Assembly (NCBI GenBank): GCA_013139985.1
Contig: WSZT01000036.1
Location: 1 to 50,604, forward strand
Direction: 5' to 3'
DNA length: 50,604 nucleotides
Source: Candidatus Methanophagales archaeon
GTDB taxonomy: Archaea > Halobacteriota > Syntropharchaeia > Alkanophagales > Methanospirareceae
The translations under genes and the position numbers were made by a program. This document shows, piece by piece, positions 4,308 to 25,933 of this stretch (positions are counted from its first letter, which is position 1; each line of letters begins with the position of its first letter). The notes under the pieces were generated by a model. The model did no database searches and was not told where the DNA came from. It saw only the letters and a program-made list of their open reading frames with translations.

Positions 4308-5909
4308 ATGGGAGAAGAGAAAGAGGTATTTATAAAAGTTAAAGGCGTGAATAAGCAATTCGAGGATAAAAAAGTATTGAAGGACATAAATCTGGATATA
4401 AAAGAGATGGAGCCTTTAGGTTTGCTCGGTAAGAGTGGCGCCGGGAAATCGGTCTTACTCCGTATGCTCCGAGGCACAGAAGAATATGCGCCGGATAGTG
4501 GTGAGATAATTTTTAGGTTGGCCTATTGCCCTTCCTGTACGTGGATAGAGGGCCCAAGCAGGGTAGGCGATAAGTGTCCGAAATGTGGTACCGAGTTTGA
4601 ATTTAAGGAAGTGAATTTCTGGCAGGATACGAGTATGAAGAGGACAATGAAGAGTGCGATTGCGATCATGCTCCAGCGCAGTTTCGCCTTGTATAGTGAC
4701 GAAGGCGTCATCTGGAATGTAATAGAAGCATTGGAGCGGGCACGATATCCAAAGAGTAAGAGGATGAAGAAGGCATATGAAATCCTGGAATCCGTAAAGA
4801 TGTTGCACCGTGTAAATATGCCTGATACAAGAGACCTCAGTGGTGGCGAGAAACAGAGAATGGTGCTTGCGAGGCAATTGGCGCTGGCTCCGATTCTGCT
4901 TTTAGCCGATGAGCCCACAGGTACGTTAGATCATGAGACAGCAAAGGTGGTGCATCGCGCACTGATAGAGACCACAAGAGGTGGAACAACATTCCTCGTC
5001 ACTTCTCATTGGCCGTATGTGATTAGGGAATTGACAGAGGAAACAGCATGGTTCGATAAGGGCGAAATAATTGAATATGGCCCGACGGATGAAGTGGTGA
5101 CTCATTTTGAGGCTCAAGTAGGCGAAATAGAGCGTGATGATTTTAAAAAGTTCGGCGACCCGATGATAAGGATAGAAAACCTAAAGAAGTATTACTTATC
5201 GGCATCGCGAGGCGTTGTGAAGGCGGTGGATGATGTCTCGTTCGAGATAAATGAGAATGAGATATTTGGTGTTGTCGGGCATAGCGGTGCGGGAAAGACG
5301 AGTTTAATGAGGATTGTAAGCCATTTAGACCCGGGGTCAGGTGGTTCTGCGTGGATAAGAGTCGGGGACAGATGGTATGAGGCATCAAAGGAGGATGCTG
5401 GTACATTCATAGAGAATGGCGTAATTGTGGGTGGTACGACCGAATGGAAATCCCATTTTGTGGGTGTCTTACATCAAGAATATAGTCTGATTCCGAAACT
5501 CACGGCCTGGGATAACCTTACGCACGGTATTGGTCTCGATATGCCAGAGGACTTAGCAACGATGAAGGTAAACTTCATGCTAAAAGGAGTGGGATTCGAA
5601 GAAGAAGAAATAGCGGAGATACTACCAAAAACGCATGATGAACTGAGCGTGGGCGAGAAACAGCGGATACTTATTGCGCAATTACTGATGAAAGAGCCTA
5701 ATATCGCGGTCCTTGATGAGCCAACCGGGACAATGGATCCGGTAACAAAGAAATACGTTGCCGAGACGATAATAAAGGCGAGGGAGAATCTGGGTACAAC
5801 TTTCGTTATTGTTACTCATGACCTTGATTTCGCAGAGAAGGTATGTGATCGAGTAGCGAAGATGGAGAATGGGAAAATCATAGAGATAGAAGATTTAAGG
5901 TCGGGTTAA
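4308..5909 (+). CDS. atwA: Methyl-coenzyme M reductase component A2-like ABC ATPase (AtwA), copy 1
   Basis: A 533-residue soluble protein with two ABC ATPase domains. Domain 1 has Walker A GKSGAGKS, signature LSGGEKQR and Walker [10 protein letters not shown]. Domain 2 has GHSGAGKT, LSVGEKQR and [10 protein letters not shown] zinc-ribbon-like insertion with two CPxC pairs (CPSC, CPKC) sits in domain 1. This is the architecture of methanogen component A2, which couples ATP hydrolysis to reductive activation of the Ni(I) cofactor F430 of MCR. There are no membrane segments. A strong ribosome-binding site (aaggaggggg) precedes the ATG. It is followed after 50 bp by a second copy and then mcrC. 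Confidence 0.9.
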   Translation: MGEEKEVFIKVKGVNKQFEDKKVLKDINLDIKEMEPLGLLGKSGAGKSVLLRMLRGTEEYAPDSGEIIFRLAYCPSCTWIEGPSRVGDKCPKCGTEFEFKEVNFWQDTSMKRTMKSAIAIMLQRSFALYSDEGVIWNVIEALERARYPKSKRMKKAYEILESVKMLHRVNMPDTRDLSGGEKQRMVLARQLALAPILLLADEPTGTLDHETAKVVHRALIETTRGGTTFLVTSHWPYVIRELTEETAWFDKGEIIEYGPTDEVVTHFEAQVGEIERDDFKKFGDPMIRIENLKKYYLSASRGVVKAVDDVSFEINENEIFGVVGHSGAGKTSLMRIVSHLDPGSGGSAWIRVGDRWYEASKEDAGTFIENGVIVGGTTEWKSHFVGVLHQEYSLIPKLTAWDNLTHGIGLDMPEDLATMKVNFMLKGVGFEEEEIAEILPKTHDELSVGEKQRILIAQLLMKEPNIAVLDEPTGTMDPVTKKYVAETIIKARENLGTTFVIVTHDLDFAEKVCDRVAKMENGKIIEIEDLRSG

Positions 5910-5959
5910 TTTCACACGGAAATTCTGTTTCCGTATATAGGAGCACAATAAAATATAAT

Positions 5960-7588
5960 ATGATGGGCGTGGAAGAAATGGGAGAAAAAGGGGTAATAGT
6001 AAAACTACAGGATATATGTAAGGAATTCGAGGGGAAAGAAGTTCTGAAGAATGTGAGTGTAGATATAAAGGAAGGGGAGTCATTGGGTCTACTTGGACGG
6101 AGTGGCTCAGGGAAATCAGCGTTGCTTCACATGCTGCGAGGTACTGAAGAATACGCACCCACAAGTGGCGAAATAATCTTCAGAGTGGCTATGTGCCCTT
6201 CATGCGACTGGGTGGATGCACCGAGTAAAGCAGGTGAGGCGTGTAATAAGTGCGGAGCAAAATTAGAATTGAAGGAAGTGAATTACTGGAAGGACAAAGA
6301 AGGAAAGAAGAAAGTGAAAAGGGCTGTTGCGATCATGCTCCAACGTACTTTTGGGTTATACAGTGATGATACAGTCATGTATAACGTAATACAGGCACTG
6401 GAGAGTAGGGATTACCCAGCAGAGAAGAAGTTTAAACGAGCTTATGATCTGTTGAAGTCGGTTAGAATGCTGCATCGTATTACCTTCCCCGCAGTTAACC
6501 TTAGTGGCGGTGAGAAACAGCGGGTAGTGCTCGCAAGGCAACTTGCATTAGATCCTATCTTACTTCTAGCAGACGAGCCCACGGGGACATTAGACTTTGA
6601 GACCGCAAAACTCGTACACAAAGCGCTGTTAGATAGTATAAAGGCGGGGATGACTATGGTTGTTACTTCCCACTGGCCTTACGTTATTAAAGAACTGTCA
6701 GAAAAGACGTTATGGCTTGAAAACGGCGAAATGGTGAAATATGGCGATTCAAAGGCGGTGGTGGAAGAGTTTGAGAGTCAGGTGGGCAAGATAGAACGTG
6801 AAGAATATACCAAAATAGGCGAGCCGAAGATAAAGATAGACCATTGTAAGAAGTATTATTATTCCATGTGGCGAGGAATGGTAAAAGCAGTGGATGATGT
6901 CACACTAACAATAAATGAGGGTGAAATATTTGGTCTCGTAGGCAAGAGTGGATCGGGAAAGACAAGCTTATCGCGGATTATAGCTCAAGTAGATCCGCTA
7001 ACGGATGGCTCTGTTCAGATACGGGTAGGCGATAGGTGGATAGAAGTGGGACGGGTGGCGGAAACGGGTGTCTGGCTTGCCTGGGGTGCGACTACGGAGG
7101 GAATGGGCGAGCAAGCGGCAGCACGGGTGGTTATGCTACATCAGGAATACTCATTATATCCGGAACACACAATATTAGCGAATCTAACCTCCTGTATCGG
7201 TTTGAAGATGCCAGAAGAGCTTGGGCGGATGAAAGCGAAGTTTGTTCTGCAAGGGGTGGGATTCAGCGAAGAAACAACGGAGGAAATACTGCCAAAAACG
7301 CATAGTGAACTGAGCGTTGGAGAAAGACAGCGTATTGCTCTTGCTCAGGTAATAATGAAGGAACCTGCAATAGCCGTGCTTGATGAGCCAACAGGCACAA
7401 TGGACCCGATAACAAAGAAATTCGTTGCCGATTCTATAAGGGCGGCACGTGAAAACCTTGGGGTGACACTCTTAATTGTCACTCACGACACGGATTTCGC
7501 TTACGATGTCTGTGATAAGATAGCGCAGATGCAGAATGGCAAGATAACGGAGATAGAAGACTTGAAATATGGTACCGAGCAAAAATAA
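5960..7588 (+). CDS. atwA: Methyl-coenzyme M reductase component A2-like ABC ATPase (AtwA), copy 2
   Basis: A 542-residue tandem paralogue of the preceding gene with the same architecture. Domain 1 has [16 protein letters not shown] and LLLADEPTG, with a CPSC/CNKC zinc-ribbon insertion. Domain 2 has [16 protein letters not shown] and IAVLDEPTG. All nucleotide-binding motifs are intact in both copies, so both should be active ATPases. An extra segment ([19 protein letters not shown]) distinguishes its second domain. Its stop codon overlaps the mcrC start (TAATG at 7586-7590), a strong sign of coupled translation with mcrC. The ATG at 5960 was chosen; an in-frame ATG at 5978 would also work. 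Confidence 0.9.
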
Positions 7589-8208
7589 TGGCCGTTGGTA
7601 GAGAGACGCAGATGTTAGCCTGCAGGAAAGGGCAGGGGCTTGGGTTAGGTGGCGGTATTGCCCAGAGAGGTACATTTGCGAAAGCGTGGAAGAACGATGT
7701 AGTTGCGGTTGCGATGTCTCCGGGTACAAGGCACGTGCCAAAGCCGGTATGCGAGATAACCACGGAATTAAGGGGTAAAGGTGTATCTACCGGTGTACTA
7801 GTCTTGAATGCCGGTAATGGGACGCCGCGTGATGCACCAAGGACTGGTGGACATGGTTCAATTTTTGGATTGGAGCAAAAAGAGATAGATATAATCGGTG
7901 GGCATAAGCTTGCCGTATTACATCATGGCAACGTAAAAGAGCATTTCATCTATAAAGTGCGGCTCGAGTTGAGAAAGATCCCGATTTCTGCTATCATCCT
8001 TTGTCAAAGCCCGGTAACGTTTGAGGAGTTCGAGCAGGTAGGTGTAAGCACGAGGAATAAAGAGTGTGAAACGCCGGGTAAAGTCGTGGGTATTGTGAGT
8101 GACATTGTGAGGCGAGAGAGTGTTCCGCAAGATAAACTAGACGAAATCGTGAGCAAAGTGAGAATGTGCCTCAGGGAAATAGAAGAGAGTGAAGAAAAAA
8201 AAGCCTAA
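7588..8208 (+). CDS. mcrC: Methyl-coenzyme M reductase operon protein C
   Basis: A 206-residue protein matching McrC throughout: an N-terminal glycine-rich segment (GLGLGGGIAQRGTF), AMSPGTRHVPKPVCEITTEL, VLNAGNGTPRDAPRTGG and HKLAVLHHGNVKEHFIYKVR. In methanogens McrC is part of the multi-protein complex that, with component A2, activates MCR by reducing F430 nickel. Here it lies about 14 kb from mcrBGA and is instead translationally coupled to the second A2 gene, which supports a shared activation function. There is no mcrD in the window. Confidence 0.9.
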   Translation: MAVGRETQMLACRKGQGLGLGGGIAQRGTFAKAWKNDVVAVAMSPGTRHVPKPVCEITTELRGKGVSTGVLVLNAGNGTPRDAPRTGGHGSIFGLEQKEIDIIGGHKLAVLHHGNVKEHFIYKVRLELRKIPISAIILCQSPVTFEEFEQVGVSTRNKECETPGKVVGIVSDIVRRESVPQDKLDEIVSKVRMCLREIEESEEKKA

Positions 8209-12046: not shown

Positions 12047-12961
12047 ATGGAACTAAACGAGCTATTGGGGATAGGCGATTTTATGCTGGTAGAAAAGAGC
12101 TATGCCGATCAAAAGTGGCTGGGCAGGACGCTCGAATACATGGCTAAGTTGAAAGGGGAAGATGTAGTAGAAGCGATAAGGATACTAGATAAGCAGCAAG
12201 AGCTGATAGGGCTTGCTATACGCGACAAAGATTTGGAGTTCTTGATTATCTTTACTGATGTCATCGCAGATAGCGGCAAGAAGGAAGAATTTGAGGCTCT
12301 TGCGAGCATGGTAAAAGGAGCAAAGACAAAAGAGGTGGAGAAGGCGGAATTTCATGAAGGGATGGTCGAGTTTTATTCCCTCGGGTTGGTGAACAGATTA
12401 TTTTGTGATTGTAATTTAAATTTAAAAGAGGATAGCTTTTATCCGCGAGAAAGGATAGAGGTATTAAAGAACGTATTGGGCGAATTCATAACTGAGAATG
12501 AGCTAAGCGGAAATAATAAAACACTTGAGATTGGATGTGGCGATGGTGGTGCGACGATAGCACTGCATGAGCTGGGTATTTACCCTCTCACTGTAGATAT
12601 AAACAAGTGTGAGATTTGTAAAGGCTTGGAGGAAGAGGCGTTAGAGCCCAAGAGGAGTATCATATTGGATTGTTCACTCCTTTCATCTTTCTTTGAAAAG
12701 GAATTTGATGTTGTGTTTGGATTCATGGTAGGAAAGCTAACTCATTTTGAGCAACTGAACTGGGAGAAGGTCTTACGAGAAGTCTCGAATGTATTAAGAA
12801 GCGAAGGTAAAGTGCTATTTACTGTCTCGAGTGAAGAAGAAGCGGTCATTATAACAGACCTATTGAATGATGATTTCGAAGGTGAGATAAAAGAGAATAA
12901 AGGAAGCAATGGGTATTTCGACCAGTGGCTGTATGTGGGTAAGCTGCGGGTGTCTGCTTAA
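12047..12961 (+). CDS. SAM-dependent class I methyltransferase with N-terminal helical domain
   Basis: A 304-residue protein. The C-terminal half has a Rossmann-type methyltransferase fold with motif I LEIGCGDGGATIAL (residues about 162-175), an acidic post-I strand TVDINKCE and a motif near FDVVFGFMVGKL. The first 150 residues are helical and unrecognised. The substrate is unknown. Its stop codon sits inside a perfect 15-bp hairpin that begins the intergenic repeat at 12952-13021. It is preceded by its own TATA box and is probably monocistronic. Confidence 0.7.
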   Translation: MELNELLGIGDFMLVEKSYADQKWLGRTLEYMAKLKGEDVVEAIRILDKQQELIGLAIRDKDLEFLIIFTDVIADSGKKEEFEALASMVKGAKTKEVEKAEFHEGMVEFYSLGLVNRLFCDCNLNLKEDSFYPRERIEVLKNVLGEFITENELSGNNKTLEIGCGDGGATIALHELGIYPLTVDINKCEICKGLEEEALEPKRSIILDCSLLSSFFEKEFDVVFGFMVGKLTHFEQLNWEKVLREVSNVLRSEGKVLFTVSSEEEAVIITDLLNDDFEGEIKENKGSNGYFDQWLYVGKLRVSA

Positions 12962-14910: not shown

Positions 14911-15216
14911 TTACCGTTTTCGCATTTTTTTCATGATTTTATCCATACGCATCTTACGCCAATCCTCTAAACCATTTATCCATTCTTCATGCTTTTTGAA
15001 TATATATTCTTTTGCCTCCATCAATGTCTCCTGCGAATTACTCCATAGTACTATCCGAGGTACATAATCCTTGGTAGGTAAGTCGGTTCTTGGATCAAAG
15101 GCATCTTCTGATTGCTCCTCCTGGCCTATTTCCAATCCGAACTTTTCCACAGCCTCGAATACTATACCTGTAGTTATACCACGAGGTATAGCTAGTGCAT
15201 ATTTCTCATCTTCCAT
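14911..15216 (-). CDS. Small hypothetical protein divergent from ycaO
   Basis: The track starts this ORF at 15294, but the ATG at 15216 is preceded by a good taaggagag ribosome-binding site and begins the protein MEDEKYALAIPRG, so I use it (101 residues). The sequence has an alpha/beta N-terminal part, a conserved-looking DYVPRIVLWSN segment and a very basic C terminus (WRKMRMDKIMKKMRKR) that could contact nucleic acid. I do not recognise the family. It follows a small zinc-finger gene by 11 bp, forming a two-gene operon divergent from the YcaO gene. Confidence 0.6.
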   Translation of the reverse strand: MEDEKYALAIPRGITTGIVFEAVEKFGLEIGQEEQSEDAFDPRTDLPTKDYVPRIVLWSNSQETLMEAKEYIFKKHEEWINGLEDWRKMRMDKIMKKMRKR

Positions 15217-15227
15217 TTTTTCTCTCC

Positions 15228-15464
15228 TTATCCAGCACCAGCACCATCTACGGCACCCATATCCATACTCGCTTCCAGTTCCTGGGCATAACACTCAGCG
15301 CAAAGAATTCTTCCCTGTACTGCAATGAATTCACCTTCTTTCACCTCTTTACCACAACTTGAACAAATCGCTTCCTTTGGTCGCAGTTCATCAGCCCTTT
15401 CTGCCTCTCTCTCCTGCCACCTTTTCGTTCTCTCGAGTGGCGTCTCTTCTACTCCTTGGGTCAT
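15228..15464 (-). CDS. Small zinc-finger/LIM-like hypothetical protein
   Basis: A 78-residue protein with paired cysteines CSSCGKEV and, 16 residues on, CAECYAQ, a treble-clef or LIM-like zinc-binding pattern (C-x2-C...C-x2-C). The N terminus is charged and helical (TPLERTKRWQEREAERADELRP); the tail is glycine/alanine-rich. It is first in a two-gene operon and diverges from ycaO with 53 bp between the start codons, so shared regulation is likely. The function is unknown. Confidence 0.65.
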   Translation of the reverse strand: MTQGVEETPLERTKRWQEREAERADELRPKEAICSSCGKEVKEGEFIAVQGRILCAECYAQELEASMDMGAVDGAGAG

Positions 15465-15517
15465 TTTACTAACAACTAAAACTAATTAAGTCATTCTATA
15501 TAAAGGTGAAGATAAAG

Positions 15518-16702
15518 ATGAAAATAGTGCTCAGACGGACGCCGAAAAGATACTTCTTCGATTCACATAGAGCTTTAACGCCTGAGGAGACGCTGAGCGA
15601 TGTCGAAGACCTAAAAGATAAGGTAGGAATAACGAAGGTAGAGGATATTACAGGGCGGGATAAGCTCGATATACCTATATGTTCTGCGAGCCGGCCGGGA
15701 GCAAAAGAAGGTGCAGTGTCGGTCCACGCCGGAAAAGGGCTTACAGATGAGCAATCGCGTGTATCGGTGCTCATGGAAGCAATAGAGCGATATTCCGCGG
15801 AAATAAAAGATGATGACCGGGCGGGATTCATGTTTGAATCATATAGTGAATGCGAAGGCGCAAAAGTGAACCCATCATCGCTAATATTGAGTGCTATTTC
15901 TAACGTTGGTCCGAAAACAAAGATAGAGTGGTGTGACGGCTATGACCTACTGCGAGAAGAGGAGATTCTAGTGCCGGCAAATGCGGTATTTCATCCCTAC
16001 ATGTCTAATCGAGGAGGAAGACTATTTAGAAGCGACAGTAACGGCATAGCGTCTGGTAACAATTACGAAGAAGCTATCTTTCATGGTATATCCGAAGTGA
16101 TAGAGCGCGACGCTTTAAGTTCGGTAGAGCTAAAGAAGGATGCAGGTGAGCGAATAGAACTCAGCGAAGAGGATGGCATGATCTACGAGTTAAAAGAGCG
16201 ATTTGAGTCGGTGGGTGCAGTACCTCGATTCTGGTATATCCCATCAGACACGGGATTTACAACGGTTGCATTAGCTTTAGATGACCTCTCCGAGGATCCT
16301 TCTTTACTCGTTTATGGCGCGGGGACACATAGCGATCCGAGAATAGCAACAATAAGAGCAATAACAGAAGCAGCGCAGTCGCGACTCATGCAGATAGTGA
16401 GTGGCGATGTAATGAAAACGCCATTTGTAATGAGTTATTCCGCAATGAAGCGATTGAATAAGCACTGGTATGAAGATAAGGGAGACGAAAAAGTGAAGTT
16501 GAACGAGCTTCCAGCTCTGGCGACTGATACAATAGATGGTGATATAATGGTTGCGCTTGATAAATTGAAGGAGCTTGTGGACCGAGTAATTGTGGTAGAT
16601 TTAACGCGGGCCGAGATAGGTATTCCAGTTGTCAGGGTGATTATTCCCGGATTTGAAGTGTATGCGCGGAACTCGGAGAGGATAGGGCATAGGTACAAGT
16701 GA
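15518..16702 (+). CDS. ycaO: YcaO-domain protein, McrA thioglycine-forming type (methanogenesis marker 1)
   Basis: A YcaO-superfamily ATPase whose sequence resembles methanogenesis marker protein 1, the enzyme that with a sulfur source thioamidates a glycine in McrA. Visible landmarks are CSASRPGAKEGAVSVHAGKG, the EAIERYSAE helix, SDSNGIASGNNYEEAIFHGISEVIERDA and EAAQSRL near residue 290, which include the family's ATP-binding glutamates. The track start at 15506 is a GTG. I prefer the ATG at 15518 (394 residues) because ggtga lies nine bases upstream. The McrA in this window has the target glycine in FFGYDLQDQC. No TfuA partner is present. Confidence 0.85.
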   Translation: MKIVLRRTPKRYFFDSHRALTPEETLSDVEDLKDKVGITKVEDITGRDKLDIPICSASRPGAKEGAVSVHAGKGLTDEQSRVSVLMEAIERYSAEIKDDDRAGFMFESYSECEGAKVNPSSLILSAISNVGPKTKIEWCDGYDLLREEEILVPANAVFHPYMSNRGGRLFRSDSNGIASGNNYEEAIFHGISEVIERDALSSVELKKDAGERIELSEEDGMIYELKERFESVGAVPRFWYIPSDTGFTTVALALDDLSEDPSLLVYGAGTHSDPRIATIRAITEAAQSRLMQIVSGDVMKTPFVMSYSAMKRLNKHWYEDKGDEKVKLNELPALATDTIDGDIMVALDKLKELVDRVIVVDLTRAEIGIPVVRVIIPGFEVYARNSERIGHRYK

Positions 16703-16765
16703 GTCGGCACAAAAAACCATCGATTTTTGTGCAGACAATGCAAAGTGCAAAGTGCAAAAGTCAAA
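16703..16765 (+). repeat. Composite hairpin + heptad intergenic repeat, copy 2
   Basis: Immediately after the ycaO stop codon lie 15-nt arms GTCGGCACAAAAAAC / GATTTTTGTGCAGAC (two mismatches, loop CATC), then heptads tgcaaag-tgcaaag-tgcaaaa-gtcaaag. The order and spacing match the copy at 12952-13021, including the GCAGACAA link between hairpin and heptads. Both copies separate convergent genes. Confidence 0.75.
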
Positions 16766-16771
16766 GATACT

Positions 16772-17725
16772 TCAACGGTGCTTTGTATTTAGGGGAGAAA
16801 ACTTCCTTATCGCCTCTTCCAGTTCCTGACGATATTCTAAATCGTCACGTTCGACCTCTCGAAGTATTTCTTCCCTTGTCTTCGATTTAGAAAGAGAAAG
16901 CCATGTGATTCTATCCTCTTCCTGGTCCTTTATGGTTCTTCTCCTGGAGCTGAGGTCAGGGTAAACGGTTATCCATGTTTCTTGTGGTGGTGGAGTAGGA
17001 TATTCACGATAGCAGCTCCTGCTAATTATAGCATTAGGAAGGTACTCAGCAGCGATTTTGTACGCTCGTTCCATATCTTCTATTGTTGGACGCTCTGTCA
17101 CACGCTCAAACGCGAAGGTAGGCGCAAATGGGTTTATCCTGAATTTTATGTTGCTATTCACGTCAGAAAGGAAAATAGCTATCTGTTCTATCTCCTCCAC
17201 GTCCACAATACCGGGCATATACACCGTTTGTATTAGCAGTTCCACCCCTGTATCGTTTAACATTCTCACGGCATTTAATACCGGTTTGTTCGACTTGCCG
17301 GTATACCATATATGGATTTCATCCGAGAAAGCTTTAATGTCTATATGGGCTTCTGTTAAACCCGCCTCCTTCAACTCGGCTGCATAATTACTATTTCCTT
17401 CCCGTCCTATCTCATAACCATTGGACATTAAAATAATCTCCTCAAATCCTTTTTCCTTCAAACCTTTTACGAGCGTCAGGAGAAATTCCTTGTCGAGTGT
17501 GGGTTCGCCACCGGTAATCATCGCTTTGGTAGGCAGCTTACCATAGTGTTTGAGGCATGCCTGTTCAGCGCGCTTTAGCGTCTCCTCCGGACTGAGCAAG
17601 GTCCCGCCGCCATCGCGTGCCGGTCGGAAACAGCCGCGGCAGCGGAAGTCACAGCCGGTGAGCATGAACCAGATGCGGGGTTCTATATCAGAAAGCGTAA
17701 AATATTGTATGTTCCTTTTGCCCAT
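16772..17725 (-). CDS. Radical SAM protein of unknown substrate
   Basis: A 317-residue radical SAM enzyme with cluster motif CDFRCRGC near residue 25 and the SAM-binding MITGGEPTLD. The N-terminal half resembles activating-enzyme or elongator-type radical SAM proteins. No second Fe-S cluster, SPASM or methylthiotransferase domain is evident; one Cys occurs in ISRSCYREYP. The C terminus is a charged helix. It converges on ycaO with a hairpin-heptad repeat between them. nrdG is already present elsewhere, so a separate target is likely. Possible roles include MCR or F430 modification, on context alone. Confidence 0.75.
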   Translation of the reverse strand: MGKRNIQYFTLSDIEPRIWFMLTGCDFRCRGCFRPARDGGGTLLSPEETLKRAEQACLKHYGKLPTKAMITGGEPTLDKEFLLTLVKGLKEKGFEEIILMSNGYEIGREGNSNYAAELKEAGLTEAHIDIKAFSDEIHIWYTGKSNKPVLNAVRMLNDTGVELLIQTVYMPGIVDVEEIEQIAIFLSDVNSNIKFRINPFAPTFAFERVTERPTIEDMERAYKIAAEYLPNAIISRSCYREYPTPPPQETWITVYPDLSSRRRTIKDQEEDRITWLSLSKSKTREEILREVERDDLEYRQELEEAIRKFSPLNTKHR

Positions 17726-17849: not shown

Positions 17850-18254
17850 ATGGTAAAAATCACAGAAGAAGTGAAAGAGCTAGTAGGTAAATCAAAGGGT
17901 TTTGCTGTCGCTACCGCTACCAAAGAAGGAGAGCCAAATGTGGTGCCGCTTGCATTTGGGAAAGTTCTATCAGAGACGGAAGTGCTGCTGATGGATGTCT
18001 TTATGAAAAAGACGGAAGAGAATATAAAGACAAATCCCAGGGTGGCTATTTCTGTCTGGGATATGGAGACTTATACAGGCTATCAGTTTAAAGGTAGTGC
18101 TCGGATAGAAACGTCGGGAAGCGTCTTTGACGATGGCGTTAATATGGTGAAAGCAATGATGCCCTCGCTTAACCCAAAAGCTGCGGTTGTCGTTACGGTG
18201 GACTCCATCTATGTGACTTCTCCGGGACCCGATTTGGGTAAAAAGGTAGAATAG
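17850..18254 (+). CDS. Pyridoxamine 5'-phosphate oxidase-fold / flavin-binding protein
   Basis: A 134-residue split-barrel protein (VKELVGKSKGFAVATATKEGEPNVVPLAFGKV...NIKTNPRVAISVWD) typical of the small PNPOx-like flavin- or F420-binding family in archaea. Members bind FMN or F420 and act as reductases, or have no known activity. A ggtga ribosome-binding site precedes the ATG. It is followed 58 bp later by an exported rhodanese in the same direction. The substrate is unknown. Confidence 0.75.
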   Translation: MVKITEEVKELVGKSKGFAVATATKEGEPNVVPLAFGKVLSETEVLLMDVFMKKTEENIKTNPRVAISVWDMETYTGYQFKGSARIETSGSVFDDGVNMVKAMMPSLNPKAAVVVTVDSIYVTSPGPDLGKKVE

Positions 18255-18312: not shown

Positions 18313-19797
18313 ATGCAAAGAAAGGTAGAAGAAAAGAAGACATTTATGCTTTTAGTGGTGGCGGGTATAGTGCTATTAACCGTAACGATAGGAACAGTGG
18401 CAGGGGCTGGATCTTCGAGTGGGGGCAGCGAGTGTCCTACTTGCAATTTTGAGCCTACTTATGACTTCTTGATGGGTGACGATGGAACCACCTGCTCTTC
18501 CTGTGGTGGTCAACGCCTGTCTGATTCTTTGAATCTTTTTTCTGATGATATTCCTATTCATCCTACAAATTGTGACTATGAGAATCCAGGCCTCATTGTT
18601 TATATGGACGATCTTAGAAATAACAGTGATCCAAATGTTGTGATCGCGGATGTTCGCACTCCTGAGCAATATGCGGAGGGGCACATTCCGGGTGCAATAA
18701 ATTTGGATTGGGCTAATTTCAGAAAGGGAAAAGGCGTTTTTATCGGAGTTGAAAATGCAACGAGGATTTTAGGTGAGCAGGGAATAAATGAGGAGAATGA
18801 AATAATCGTGTATTGCAGTAGTGCTATGGGTACGCAATGCCCGGCATCTTATTATGTCTTCTGGATGCTCGAATACCTCGGGCATGAGCACGTTTCGGTC
18901 CTGGATGGTGGGTTCAATGCATGGAGCCCTGCGTATGGATACACGCAGAACGAGACGACACGAGCTCCTACTACGTATACAGCCACTGTGGTGGACGAGA
19001 GGTTTGCCGATACAGAGTGGGTTCAAAATAATCTTAATAACTCGGCGGTTCAGATAGTGGATGCAAGAACGACAGAAGACTACAAGGCGGGTCATATCGA
19101 AGGTGCAATAAACATAAACTACGAAAATCTGTTTAGAGATGGGGACCGGTTGAGAGGAGCGGATGGACTGAGGTTGTTTTTATCGCCTGTCGTGATCCCC
19201 GGATTGGATAAAAAGAAGGATACAGTTGTGTATTGCCAATCAGGAGCGAGCGCGTCATTCTTGTATCTCGCATTGCGAATGATGGGTTATCAAGTGCGGA
19301 ATTATGACGGGTCATGGAACGTATGGTGTGAAACACATCCTGAGCTAACGATACCGATTTCAAATGTGAGTGTAAATCCGAGTTCTGTATATAAAGGTGG
19401 TACAGTAAGCATATATGCAGATGTAAAAATCAATTCTACTGAAATGAAGGAAGAGGCAACGGGCACCTCGCTTAATCCAAGTGGACGTAATCTACCATAT
19501 ATTCCCGGTGCAGGTTGCGCTTATTGTAGTGGCGCATCTGCTGTCCCGACATCCTCTACATCCACCGGTACTTCTTTTGTCCGTGGATACATATATGATG
19601 GCAATGGAACCAATGTTAAGATTGTCATTATGCAGACTGATGATAGCGGTGATAGGCGATATCTGGGTGAATGGGAGACAGACTCCGCAGAAGAGGGAAT
19701 TTACCACGTGGATATTGTAGCATCGGATGGAGTATTAAGGGCAAAGGAAAAGGATGCGGCAACGTTTGAAGTGGTGTCAGATACTGCGGGTCCCTAA
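18313..19797 (+). CDS. Exported protein with two rhodanese domains
   Basis: A 494-residue protein with an N-terminal hydrophobic segment (FMLLVVAGIVLLTVTIGTVAGAG) acting as signal peptide or anchor, then a CPTC pair and CSSCGG. Two rhodanese domains follow with active-site loops CSSAMGTQC (residues about 175) and CQSGASA (about 300), each preceded by DVRTPEQYAEGHIPGAI or DARTTEDYKAGHIEGAI. The C-terminal region (about 350-490) looks beta-sandwich-like. Rhodaneses transfer sulfane sulfur, here outside the cytoplasmic membrane. The gene ends 13 bp before the second U32 paralogue, so the two may be cotranscribed. Confidence 0.85.
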   Translation: MQRKVEEKKTFMLLVVAGIVLLTVTIGTVAGAGSSSGGSECPTCNFEPTYDFLMGDDGTTCSSCGGQRLSDSLNLFSDDIPIHPTNCDYENPGLIVYMDDLRNNSDPNVVIADVRTPEQYAEGHIPGAINLDWANFRKGKGVFIGVENATRILGEQGINEENEIIVYCSSAMGTQCPASYYVFWMLEYLGHEHVSVLDGGFNAWSPAYGYTQNETTRAPTTYTATVVDERFADTEWVQNNLNNSAVQIVDARTTEDYKAGHIEGAININYENLFRDGDRLRGADGLRLFLSPVVIPGLDKKKDTVVYCQSGASASFLYLALRMMGYQVRNYDGSWNVWCETHPELTIPISNVSVNPSSVYKGGTVSIYADVKINSTEMKEEATGTSLNPSGRNLPYIPGAGCAYCSGASAVPTSSTSTGTSFVRGYIYDGNGTNVKIVIMQTDDSGDRRYLGEWETDSAEEGIYHVDIVASDGVLRAKEKDAATFEVVSDTAGP

Positions 19798-22033: not shown

Positions 22034-23329
22034 ATGGCAGACGAGATAGATTTATATGATGACAGAGGTAGCGTATTAGCGAAGGGCGTACCACTAGATG
22101 CGATCAGTCCGTTGAAGAATGCTGCGATAAAGAAGATTATCAGCATGACCATTCGGACAGGTGCGGTTGACATGGCGGGCCTGGACAAGAAGTTGAAGAC
22201 AGGGGCAATAGCCGGAAGAGGTATGGTAATCCGGGGCGTAGGAAGAGACATCCCTGTACTAGACAAGGTGAACGAGATAGCGAAATCCGTAGAGGACATG
22301 CTGCGTGTTGAACCAGGCGATGACACGAAAGTCGAGTTAATCGCAGGTGGAAAGCGGATGTTGACGCAGGTGCCAACGGCAAGGATCCTATCCGATTACT
22401 CCGTAGGTCTAACAGCGGCAATGGGTGCGCTGACGCACGCGATAATAGACGTATGCGACGTGAGTATGTGGGATGCACCGTATGTGCATGCAGCAGTATG
22501 GGGAATGTACCCCCAGAATCCAGACCCGGCAGATGGAGCAGTAAAGATGCTCGTGGATATACCGATGAAGAATGAGGGTCCGGGATTTACGCTGAGGAAC
22601 ATACCTGTGAACCACTTAGCGGCGACAGTGCGGAAGAGAGCGATTCAGGGTTCTGCATTAACCATGATCCTGGAAGAGGCAGCGCAGTTTGAGATGGGTA
22701 ACTGCATGGGACCCCATGAGCGTGGGCATCTTCTGGACCTGGCGTATGAGGGACTGAATGCGAACAACCTATTGTACAACCTGATAAAGGATAACGGAAA
22801 GGGTACACTGGCCGATGTTGTGTATGGCCTGGTGGAGAAAGCAAAAGAAGACGGCGTGATAAAACCTAAGAAGAAGCTGGGATCCGGGTACATGGTTTAT
22901 GAGGCACCAGATCCACAGTTGTGGAATGCATATGCATCTGCGGGACTGCTTGCAGCGGTATGCGTGAATTGCGGTGCGATGCGTGCAGGTCAATCAGTAC
23001 CAGGATGTATCATGTATTTCAACGTGCTGCTGGAGCATGAGACCGGTATGCCTGGAGTGGATCATGGAATGGCACAAGGTGCTTCTGTATCGAGTTCGTT
23101 CTTTTCGCACTCGATCTATGGAGGCGGAGGACCAGGAGTGTTCTACGGGAACCACATCGTTACGAGGCATCCGAAAGGTCAGTTCATACCATGCTTCTGC
23201 GCTTCGATGTGCTTAGATGCGGACACGATGTACTTCTCACCAGCGAGGACATCTGCGCTGTATGGAGAGGTACTGGGAGCGATACCGGAGTTTGCGGAGC
23301 CGATGAAAGCGGTTGCAGGAGCCGTATAA
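22034..23329 (+). CDS. mcrB: Methyl-coenzyme M reductase beta subunit
   Basis: A 431-residue McrB starting MADEIDLYDDRGSVLAKGVPLDAISPL. The beta subunit helps form the two active-site channels of the alpha2beta2gamma2 enzyme that, in ANME, activates methane with heterodisulfide to give methyl-CoM and CoB. The C-terminal half shows the conserved ASVSSSFFSHSIYGGGGPGVF region lining the channel. The start is fixed by the aaggagga ribosome-binding site. It is first in the operon mcrB-mcrG-mcrA, which lacks the mcrD and mcrC genes usual in methanogens. Confidence 0.97.
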   Translation: MADEIDLYDDRGSVLAKGVPLDAISPLKNAAIKKIISMTIRTGAVDMAGLDKKLKTGAIAGRGMVIRGVGRDIPVLDKVNEIAKSVEDMLRVEPGDDTKVELIAGGKRMLTQVPTARILSDYSVGLTAAMGALTHAIIDVCDVSMWDAPYVHAAVWGMYPQNPDPADGAVKMLVDIPMKNEGPGFTLRNIPVNHLAATVRKRAIQGSALTMILEEAAQFEMGNCMGPHERGHLLDLAYEGLNANNLLYNLIKDNGKGTLADVVYGLVEKAKEDGVIKPKKKLGSGYMVYEAPDPQLWNAYASAGLLAAVCVNCGAMRAGQSVPGCIMYFNVLLEHETGMPGVDHGMAQGASVSSSFFSHSIYGGGGPGVFYGNHIVTRHPKGQFIPCFCASMCLDADTMYFSPARTSALYGEVLGAIPEFAEPMKAVAGAV

Positions 23330-23349
23330 ATAAGGAGGAAAGAAAAAAA

Positions 23350-24192
23350 ATGCCACAATATTGTCAAGGAAAAACACATATAGCTGATACACGAAGAAGA
23401 TACATGAACCCAAACGTCAAGTTAGAGAAGCTGAGAGACATAGCGGAAGAGGACATTGTGAGATTACTTGCACACCGTGCTCCAGGAGAAGAGTACAAGA
23501 GTATTCATCCACCTCTGGAAGAGATGGAAGAGCCGGATTGCGCAGTTCGTCAGATGGTAGAGCCTACAGATGGTGCAAAAGCAGGTGACCGAATAAGATA
23601 CGTGCAGTACACCGATTCGATGTTCTTCTCACCGATAACGCCTTATCTACGTGCACAGTCTGCGTTTAACAGGTATAGAGGTATAGACCCAGGAGTGCTA
23701 TCAGGGAGAACGATCATAGAAGCGAGAGAGAGAGACGTAGAGAAGATAGCCAAGGAAACACTCGATAGTGAGCTCTACGATACTGCAAGGACCGGACTGA
23801 GAGGAAGGACAGTGCACGGGCATGCGGTTCGACTGGATGCGAACGGTATGATGTTCGATGCTCTGCGGAGATGGTCAGTAGATGAGCGCACAAAAGAGGT
23901 TACTTACGTGAAGGACATGATCGGCGGTGCGATGGACAAAGAGGTAGTAATGGGCAAGCCACTGTCAGAAGCAGACTTACTGAAGAGGACGTGCATGTAC
24001 AGGAACGCGCAAGGCGGAGTCTGGCAAGAGGAAGATGATCCGGAGTCAATGGATGTATGTGCAGAGATACACTGGAAGAGAACGGTAGGTGGATTCCAGC
24101 CCTGGAAGAATATATCAGACGTAAAAGGTGGAAAGAAGGACATAGGCGTGAAGAACCTGAAGTTGTTCGTACCAAGAGGAGGAGTATTATAA
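23350..24192 (+). CDS. mcrG: Methyl-coenzyme M reductase gamma subunit
   Basis: The track start (23191) lies inside mcrB. The ATG at 23350, with taaggagga at 23331-23339 upstream, gives the expected N terminus MPQYCQGKTHIADTRRRYMNP and 280 residues. The family segment LLAHRAPGEEYKSIHPPLEE and the channel-lining LRGRTVHGHAVRLDANGMMFD are present. The gamma subunit completes the F430 pocket. It is separated from mcrB by 20 bp and from mcrA by one base. Confidence 0.96.
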   Translation: MPQYCQGKTHIADTRRRYMNPNVKLEKLRDIAEEDIVRLLAHRAPGEEYKSIHPPLEEMEEPDCAVRQMVEPTDGAKAGDRIRYVQYTDSMFFSPITPYLRAQSAFNRYRGIDPGVLSGRTIIEARERDVEKIAKETLDSELYDTARTGLRGRTVHGHAVRLDANGMMFDALRRWSVDERTKEVTYVKDMIGGAMDKEVVMGKPLSEADLLKRTCMYRNAQGGVWQEEDDPESMDVCAEIHWKRTVGGFQPWKNISDVKGGKKDIGVKNLKLFVPRGGVL

Positions 24193-24193
24193 A

Positions 24194-25933
24194 ATGCCAT
24201 ATAATGATATACAGCATAGTTTCATGAAGGCGATGTCAGATAAGTTCGATGAGAAGCCAGAGAGTACCGAGACAAAGTTCTACGTGTATGGTGGTATAGC
24301 GCAGAAAGGAGGGATGAGGAAGCGAGAGTTCATAGCTGAAGCGAAGAAGATCGTAGATAGCCGGGTATCTGGTACGCCAGCGTACAATCCTGATGTAGGG
24401 ATGCCGCAAGGGCAGAGATTCTTGATGCCTTACATGATGAACCACACGGACATCATGGTGAACGCGGACGATCTGCACTGGATAAACAATGCAGCAATGC
24501 AGCAGTGCTGGGACGACATGAAGAGAGGTATCGTCTTAGGACTAGACGATGCGCACGGCCTGTTAGAGGCGAGATTGGGTAAGGAAGTTACGCCTGATAC
24601 AATAAGCCACTACATGGAAGTTCTGAACCACGCATTACCTGGTGGTGCGGTCATTCAGGAGCACATGGTGGAGACGAAGCCAATGCTCGTAAATGACAGT
24701 TACGCGAAGATATTCACCGGTGATGACGACCTTGCAGATGCTGTAGACAGGAGGTTCCTGTTAGACATCAACAAGGAGTTCGCAGCAGGCTGGGAGAAAC
24801 CAGGCGAGCAGGCAGACCAGTTGAAAGATGCAATTGGGAAGAAGATCTGGCAGGTCCTGTGGATGCCCACAGTCGTAGGGAGGATGACCGATGGTGGAAC
24901 GATGTTCAGATGGGTAGGTATGCAGGTCGGAATGACAATGATAAGTGCATACAAGTTGTGCGCAGGGGAATCAGTTACGGGTGAATTCGCATACTATGCG
25001 AAGCATGCCGCAGTGGTTCAGTTGTCAAACTACATGCCGGTAAAGAGAGCAAGGGCACATAACGAGCCTGGTGGAATGCCATTAGGTATAAATGCAGACA
25101 GTGTGAGATCACCTGCATTGTTCCCGAACGACCCGATAAGGGATGAATTAGAGAGCATCGCAGTTGCAGCTATGGTTTACGACCAGTTGTGGTTCGGAAC
25201 GTACATGTCTGGAGGTGTAGGATTCACGCAGTATGCGAGTGCAACATACACGGACAACATCCTGGAGGACTTCTGCTACAAGGGCTGTGAGATAGGACTG
25301 GATTACGCAGGTGGCGAAATGGCTTCGGTAAAGGGCGACAAGCTCAACATGGACATCCTGGAACAGATAATAAGAGCAGAGAACGATTATGCACTGACGC
25401 AATACGAAGCATACCCGACAGTTGCGGAGTCGCACTTCGGTGGATCGGTTAGGGCATGCTGTGCAGCAGCGGGATGTGGTAGTGCAGTTGCATGTGCAAC
25501 AGGACTTGCACAGCCAACGCTGAGTGCGTGGTCATTGTCTATGCTGGGACACTACGAGCGTAAAGGAAGACTAGGATTCTTCGGATACGATCTGCAAGAC
25601 CAGTGTACAGCATGTGGTTCGTATTCATACCAGAGCGATGAGGGAATGCCATTCGAGATGAGAGGCGTGAACTATCCGAACTACGCGATGAATGTGGGCC
25701 ATCAGAGTGCGTACGCCGGTCTGGTAGCGGGAGCACACTGTGCGAACAAGGACGCATGGGTACTGTCACCATTGTGGAAGGTGGCGTTCTCAGATCGTGA
25801 CCTACCGTTCGACCGTGGATACGTAACCAAGGAGTACGGACTGGGAGCAAACAGGGAATACACCAAGGTTGCAGGAGAGAGAGACCTGATAATCGCGGGA
25901 CATTACGGCAGAGAACCTGGTGCAAGGTTGTAA
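24194..25933 (+). CDS. mcrA: Methyl-coenzyme M reductase alpha subunit, ANME-1 type
   Basis: A 579-residue catalytic subunit. The Gln axial ligand of F430 nickel is in VIQEHMVE (Q155), the N-methylhistidine target is in AKHAAVV (H271), and the thioglycine target is in FFGYDLQDQ (G464). By my count Val419 in GGSVRACC replaces the modified Gln of methanogens. A CC-x4-C-x5-C patch (C422, C423, C428, C434) follows. Both are hallmarks of the ANME-1 enzyme that binds methylthio-F430. The subunit is longer than the roughly 550 residues of methanogen McrA. Translation is coupled to mcrG, and a strong hairpin terminator follows. Confidence 0.98.
   Translation: MPYNDIQHSFMKAMSDKFDEKPESTETKFYVYGGIAQKGGMRKREFIAEAKKIVDSRVSGTPAYNPDVGMPQGQRFLMPYMMNHTDIMVNADDLHWINNAAMQQCWDDMKRGIVLGLDDAHGLLEARLGKEVTPDTISHYMEVLNHALPGGAVIQEHMVETKPMLVNDSYAKIFTGDDDLADAVDRRFLLDINKEFAAGWEKPGEQADQLKDAIGKKIWQVLWMPTVVGRMTDGGTMFRWVGMQVGMTMISAYKLCAGESVTGEFAYYAKHAAVVQLSNYMPVKRARAHNEPGGMPLGINADSVRSPALFPNDPIRDELESIAVAAMVYDQLWFGTYMSGGVGFTQYASATYTDNILEDFCYKGCEIGLDYAGGEMASVKGDKLNMDILEQIIRAENDYALTQYEAYPTVAESHFGGSVRACCAAAGCGSAVACATGLAQPTLSAWSLSMLGHYERKGRLGFFGYDLQDQCTACGSYSYQSDEGMPFEMRGVNYPNYAMNVGHQSAYAGLVAGAHCANKDAWVLSPLWKVAFSDRDLPFDRGYVTKEYGLGANREYTKVAGERDLIIAGHYGREPGARL

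What the first reader, a model, noticed from the sequence alone, without database searches (positions are those of the whole stretch)
14911..17725. YcaO neighbourhood with two small proteins and a radical SAM enzyme
The McrA-type ycaO is divergent from a two-gene operon (zinc-finger protein plus basic protein) with only 53 bp between starts, and convergent with a radical SAM protein. TfuA, the usual partner, is missing. The small proteins may replace TfuA in sulfur delivery, and the radical SAM enzyme may act on MCR or F430.
Basis: inference. Interest (0 to 1): 0.6.

Follow-up and report, generated by a model that had tools for sequence, protein, structure and literature searches.

The report
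Small protein family linked to MCR
In a methane-eating archaeon, the two small genes beside an enzyme that puts sulfur into methyl-coenzyme M reductase (MCR) do not look like stand-ins for its missing partner TfuA; one of them is a member of an unnamed protein family found in nearly all archaea that have MCR, so it probably helps to build or activate that enzyme.

Summary
The four genes exist as described, but the basic protein is basic only at its C-terminus (pI 5.3). YcaO passes the McrA-glycine thioamidation model. TfuA is absent from this genome, from its genus and from 32 of 51 ANME-1-family genomes. The TfuA-replacement idea is not supported: P4 (101 aa) and the zinc-finger protein ZnF occur as often with TfuA as without (15/19 vs 29/32; 16/19 vs 29/32), and TfuA-free thioamidation is already known. 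P4 follows MCR, not YcaO. Its weak homologues, unnamed in Pfam and NCBIfam, track mcrA across the phylum (172 both, 146 neither, 25 discordant) and lie beside mmp7, mcrC-mmp5, mmp14, mmp2, mcrGA or ycaO-tfuA in other lineages. In ANME-1, P4 lies within 10 kb of mcr, mcrC/atwA or ycaO genes on 23 of 28 contigs. P4 is not McrD; its predicted fold is KH-like without GxxG. ZnF is ANME-1-specific with an invariant C-terminal G-[A/G]-G, and is divergent from one TfuA-free YcaO clade (14 of 16 loci), never from the TfuA-linked clade. The radical SAM linkage holds only within the genus. Best reading: an MCR-biogenesis neighbourhood carrying an overlooked MCR-linked protein family.

The parts
15506..16702 (+). 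ycaO, clade B, McrA-glycine thioamidation type (ATG start more likely at 15518)
   Evidence: TIGR03266 406 bits, cut-off 365; tree clade of 16 rows, 100/100, never beside tfuA
15228..15464 (-). ZnF, 78 aa, Cys4 zinc finger with invariant C-terminal G-[A/G]-G
   Evidence: LIM-like match; alignment of 34 homologues; glycine codons vary freely; full-length matches only in the ANME-1 family
14911..15216 (-). P4, 101 aa, KH-like small protein, ANME-1 member of an unnamed MCR-linked family
   Evidence: A1 vs methanogen profile A3: hhalign probability 97%, E 1e-10; census; AF2 pLDDT 87.6, Foldseek best hits KH domains
16772..17725 (-). radical SAM protein, PflA/YjjW-like, function not assigned
   Evidence: PF04055 E 3e-22; no equivalog cut-off reached among the families shown; linkage to ycaO genus-specific
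15465..15517 (.). divergent ZnF/ycaO intergenic region with a TATA-like stretch ctatataaag at about 15496
   Evidence: sequence; gap 52-99 bp in 14 loci; promoter function not tested
12047..12961 (+). MT304, class I SAM methyltransferase, usual neighbour of ZnF/P4 in other ANME-1 genera
   Evidence: Pfam Methyltransf_11; 7-107 bp from P4 or ZnF in 16 contigs
7588..8208 (+). mcrC
   Evidence: TIGR03264 244 bits
4308..7588 (+). two tandem atwA (component A2) genes
   Evidence: TIGR03269 635 bits for the first; the second clusters with it
22034..25933 (+). mcrB-mcrG-mcrA; McrA carries the target motif LGFFGYDLQDQC
   Evidence: translation; mcrA search of own genome positive

Best explanation
This is the ycaO end of an ANME-1 gene neighbourhood for making and activating MCR. 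YcaO-B thioamidates the McrA glycine without TfuA, most likely using free sulfide or a general sulfur source of the cell. P4 is the ANME-1 version of a small KH-like protein that accompanies MCR in most methane-metabolising archaea; it most likely binds an MCR subunit (nascent or assembled) or an activation-complex protein during assembly or activation. ZnF is an ANME-1-specific accessory, often in an operon with P4. The radical SAM gene is a local neighbour without a shown role in MCR. Shown by computation: family of YcaO, absence of TfuA from the held genome, homology and co-distribution of P4, gene linkages. Inferred: every biochemical role.
For: P4 profile hits in methanogens form one family (hhalign 97%, E 1e-10). 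With the mixed profile, P4 and mcrA are found together in 172 genomes outside the ANME-1 family, neither in 146, mcrA alone in 14, P4 alone in 11 (tallied by hand; Fisher test). Ten of those 11 lie in families whose other members have mcrA. Hits extend to Methanopyri, Methanomethylicota, Methanococcales 5/5 and Methanobacteriales 6-7 of 8, some weak. Neighbours: mmp7 in Methanococcales, mmp6-mmp3/mcrD-mcrC-mmp5 in Methanomethylicota, mmp14, mmp2, mcrG-mcrA and ycaO-tfuA. Mmp7, Mmp3 and McrC are parts of the MCR activation complex (PMC12176620). In ANME-1, P4 lies within 10 kb of mcrA/B, mcrC, atwA or ycaO on 23 of 28 contigs, including between mcrC and mcrB.
Against: P4 homologues were not reported in the purified Methanococcus activation complex (PMC12176620 lists McrC, Mmp7, Mmp17, Mmp3, A2, DUF2098). 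None was found in 4 of 4 Methanomassiliicoccales and 2 of 2 mcr-bearing Archaeoglobi, so it is not indispensable for every MCR. Methanobacteriales hits are short and weak (1e-8 to 3e-3). Many genomes are related, so the Fisher p value overstates independence. The KH likeness is weak (Foldseek E 0.02, TM about 0.4).
Confidence: 0.55

Rival explanations
1. ZnF (with or without P4) is the partner of YcaO-B and delivers sulfur or presents McrA, taking the place of TfuA.
For: ZnF is divergent from YcaO-B in 14 of 16 loci (52-99 bp) and never from YcaO-A; TfuA adjoins YcaO-A only; G025, G047 and G048 hold both arrangements. Invariant C-terminal G-[A/G]-G with freely varying codons.
Against: ZnF and P4 are as common in TfuA-bearing genomes. 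In g12 and G007 the B-type YcaO has no ZnF beside it. ZnF lacks a predicted beta-grasp fold and the GG end of sulfur carriers. YcaO works without TfuA elsewhere (PMC5589413, PMC13063428).
Confidence: 0.15
2. P4 and ZnF are regulators: a KH-like RNA-binding protein and a zinc-finger protein that control expression of the mcr, mcrC and ycaO genes beside them.
For: KH-like predicted fold and basic C-terminal helix; divergent shared promoter region; P4 is often on the opposite strand to the MCR genes it adjoins.
Against: The RNA-binding GxxG loop of KH domains is absent. The basic tail is missing in several homologues.
Confidence: 0.2
3. The linkage is only shared ancestry of a genome region, with no functional tie between the small proteins and MCR.
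For: Five of 28 ANME-1 P4 contigs have no MCR-related gene within the fetched stretch; in Methanobacteriales the homologue lies by tyrS, not by MCR genes.
Against: Different MCR-related neighbours in different phyla and near-identical distribution to mcrA are hard to get by inheritance of one gene order.
Confidence: 0.1

Closest known systems
Methanogenesis marker proteins (Mmp1-17) and MCR activation complex parts
   Same: Distribution follows MCR; neighbours of mmp7, mmp3, mmp5, mmp14, mmp2 and mcrC
   Different: P4 has no Pfam or NCBIfam model and was not listed in the purified complex (PMC12176620). Whether it is among the 38 markers of Borrel et al. could not be checked.
McrD
   Same: Small MCR-linked protein; ANME-1 is reported to lack mcrD (PMC9081873, PMC9584954), confirmed here for 49 of 51 family genomes
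   Different: No profile similarity (hhalign 0.2%); G032 and G033 carry both P4 and McrD
KH domain proteins
   Same: b-a-b-b-a order and best Foldseek hits
   Different: No GxxG motif; match weak
YcaO-TfuA thioglycine system of Methanosarcina acetivorans
   Same: YcaO family and target motif in McrA
   Different: No TfuA; B-clade YcaO is separated by a branch of about 1 change per site
ThiS/MoaD/SAMP sulfur carriers
   Same: Small protein ending in invariant glycine near a sulfur-inserting enzyme
   Different: Zinc finger, no beta-grasp fold predicted; ends G-[A/G]-G, not GG

Membership tests
McrA-glycine thioamidation YcaO (TIGR03266) | score above curated cut-off 365 bits | tested here: met
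   406 bits
McrA-glycine thioamidation YcaO (TIGR03266) | McrA with the target glycine motif in the same genome | tested here: met
   LGFFGYDLQDQC in the window's McrA
McrA-glycine thioamidation YcaO (TIGR03266) | thioamidation activity | not testable with these tools
   needs biochemistry or proteomics
TfuA (PF07812) | a TfuA homologue in the genome or among the small proteins | tested here: not met
   no hit in G000; no Pfam hit for P4, other families for ZnF
McrD (PF02505) | profile similarity of P4 to McrD | tested here: not met
Methanogenesis marker (distribution sense) | occurrence follows MCR | tested here: met
   with the exceptions listed
Methanogenesis marker (distribution sense) | named model in NCBIfam | tested here: not met
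KH domain | fold | tested here: inconclusive
   Foldseek E 0.02, TM about 0.4
KH domain | GxxG loop | tested here: not met
   absent in alignments
Ubiquitin-like sulfur carrier (ThiS/MoaD) | beta-grasp fold and C-terminal GG | tested here: not met
   ZnF model of low confidence (pLDDT 72.5)
Mmp10 radical SAM methyltransferase | match to the NCBIfam Mmp10 model | tested here: not met
   not among the 25 best of 34 families listed
Glycyl-radical activase (PflA-like) | radical SAM domain with CX3CX2C | tested here: met
Glycyl-radical activase (PflA-like) | a glycyl-radical enzyme partner | not tested
   NrdD lies in the window but has its own NrdG

The most novel reading that the evidence does not exclude
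ZnF is a new kind of sulfur carrier or docking partner: its conserved C-terminal G-[A/G]-G is loaded with sulfur (or docks in YcaO-B) and serves only the TfuA-free YcaO clade, while P4 escorts the MCR substrate, so ANME-1 has a second, TfuA-independent thioamidation system.
Probability: 0.07. Interest if true: 0.85.

Novelty: new member of a known kind. Interest (0 to 1): 0.55.

Why it matters
MCR makes and consumes most biological methane, and its assembly and activation are not fully understood. A small protein family that follows MCR across several phyla and sits by mmp7, mcrC, mmp3, mmp14 and ycaO, yet has no name in Pfam or NCBIfam, is a directly testable candidate for a missing factor, with homologues in tractable methanogens. 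The two YcaO clades of ANME-1 also give a natural test of what TfuA is for.

Tried and rejected
P4 as a divergent McrD: attractive because ANME-1 lacks mcrD and P4 lies between mcrC and mcrB in G046 and G049, but hhalign gave 0.2% and two basal genomes have both. The conserved glycine end of ZnF as a by-product of a ribosome-binding site of P4: rejected, since glycine codons vary and the end is kept where P4 does not follow. A wider YcaO tree placed the B clade near one long methanogen branch; that join is not trusted. P4 homologues within 10 kb of mcrA in 80 named records: none.

Full report
OBSERVATION. The window is contig 124 of a 2.1-Mb, 87% complete genome. By content (mcrBGA without mcrD, separate mcrC) and by the statements of PMC9081873 and PMC9584954 it is ANME-1-like; no tool named the organism. 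YcaO passes the NCBIfam model for McrA-glycine thioamidation with 406 bits against a cut-off of 365. ZnF (78 aa) has one Cys4 finger; P4 (101 aa) had no match. P4 is not basic overall: pI 5.29, with a basic last stretch. TfuA has no match in the genome.

SYNTENY AND TfuA. In 58 genomes of the class, 51 of them in the window's family, TfuA was found in 19, P4 in 44, ZnF in 45, YcaO in 49. Within the family P4 is in 15 of 19 TfuA-bearing and 29 of 32 TfuA-free genomes, ZnF in 16 of 19 and 29 of 32 (p 0.40 and 0.66). So the small proteins do not appear where TfuA is lost. A YcaO tree splits the family into two groups on a branch of about one change per site with full support. Clade B (16 rows, with the window) is beside ZnF in 14, with 52-99 bp between the aligned starts, and never beside tfuA. 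Clade A adjoins tfuA in most rows and never ZnF in this divergent way; genus g11 has clade A without TfuA. G025, G047 and G048 have both clades, each with its own neighbour. This clade-specific pairing is the best support for any special ZnF-YcaO tie. TfuA-free thioamidation needs no substitute: Methanopyrus and Methanocaldococcus have thioglycine and no TfuA (PMC5589413), and the E. coli YcaO works in vitro with sulfide and without TfuA (PMC13063428, which also notes that organisms in sulfidic settings may not need the carrier route). ANME-1 live in sulfidic sediment (general knowledge).

P4 BELONGS TO AN MCR-LINKED FAMILY. A profile of 30 ANME-1 P4 proteins found weak hits, E 1e-4 to 1e-2, almost only in methanogen families. 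Read out, these are proteins of about 80-140 aa with the pattern YDLxIPPGxPxxVIxExxxKF ... REILVLRGDLE. Profile against profile the two sets match with 97% probability, E 1e-10. A mixed profile found the family in 227 of 394 genomes of the phylum; mcrA was found in 218 of the same 394. Outside the ANME-1 family the counts are 172 both, 14 mcrA only, 11 P4 only, 146 neither (tallied by hand from the two lists; test). Ten of the 11 belong to families with mcrA; the other is G158 at E 0.007. Relatedness makes the p value only a guide. In 36 named genomes reached through mcrA, 26 had a hit at E up to 0.1: strong in Methanomethylicota and Methanoliparia, 5e-13 in Methanopyri, weaker in Methanococcales and Methanobacteriales, none in Methanomassiliicoccales or mcr-bearing Archaeoglobi.

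NEIGHBOURS OF THE FAMILY. Methanococcales: directly after mmp7. Methanomethylicota: 6 bp from mmp5 in a cluster with mmp6, mmp3, mcrD and mcrC. L199: directly after mmp14. L192 and L195: beside mmp2. L193 and L196: beside mcrG-mcrA and a small DnaJ-type zinc-finger gene. L201: between mtr genes and ycaO-tfuA. In ANME-1, 23 of 28 P4 contigs have an mcr, mcrC/atwA or ycaO gene within 10 kb; in G046 and G049 P4 lies between mcrC and mcrB, and in G007 the pair is divergent from mcrB with ycaO 600 kb away. Mmp7, Mmp3, Mmp17, McrC and A2 form the MCR activation complex (PMC12176620).

STRUCTURE. The P4 model is good (pLDDT 87.6): b-a-b-b-long helix. The best PDB matches are KH domains, E 0.02, TM about 0.4, but the GxxG loop is missing. 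McrD is excluded. The ZnF model is of low confidence (pLDDT 72.5) with a poorly predicted tail. That tail ends in G-[A/G]-G in all 34 aligned proteins with all four glycine codons in use, and also where P4 does not follow, so selection acts on the protein. Full-length ZnF matches are confined to the ANME-1 family; other hits cover only the finger.

RADICAL SAM. The protein is PflA/YjjW-like with no cut-off reached among the families listed. It adjoins ycaO in G000 and G030 only, is near in G031, and is on another contig in G028. In other genera relatives lie 0.6-8 kb from YcaO-A in some genomes. No evidence ties it to MCR or F430.

CONCLUSION. The region is best read as part of an MCR-biogenesis neighbourhood. 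What is new is the recognition that P4 is one of a widespread MCR-linked family without a Pfam or NCBIfam name. Its role is inferred, not shown.

Noticed in passing
window 12047-12961 (+): SAM methyltransferase MT304 with a roughly 150-aa N-terminal part of no known domain lies 7-107 bp from P4 or ZnF in 16 ANME-1 contigs, tighter than the ycaO link; a candidate MCR or F430 methyltransferase (architecture like that described for McmA in PMC7058361).
   Followed up: partly
window 4308-7588 (+): Two tandem AtwA (component A2) copies before mcrC, conserved in many ANME-1 genomes.
   Followed up: no
L193:3698-3952, L196:4281-4526: A small DnaJ-type zinc-finger gene sits between mcrA and the P4 homologue in two genomes of family f36; a different finger type from the ANME-1 ZnF but in the same company.
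   Followed up: partly
window 17850-18254; L192:4764-5165; L197:235-642: A PNPOx-like flavoprotein gene occurs near P4 or its homologues in three distant lineages.
   Followed up: no
window 18313-19797 (+): Double rhodanese-domain protein with an apparent signal peptide near ycaO; rhodanese genes near ycaO-tfuA were noted in PMC5589413.
   Followed up: no
G025 (L132/L134), G047 (L176/L056), G048 (L142/L143): Genomes carrying both YcaO clades, one with TfuA and one with ZnF: useful for testing whether the two act on the same McrA.
   Followed up: partly
G028:C26, G030:C27, G035:C78, G036:C64, G039:C5: ZnF paralogues whose matches stop before the glycine tail.
   Followed up: no
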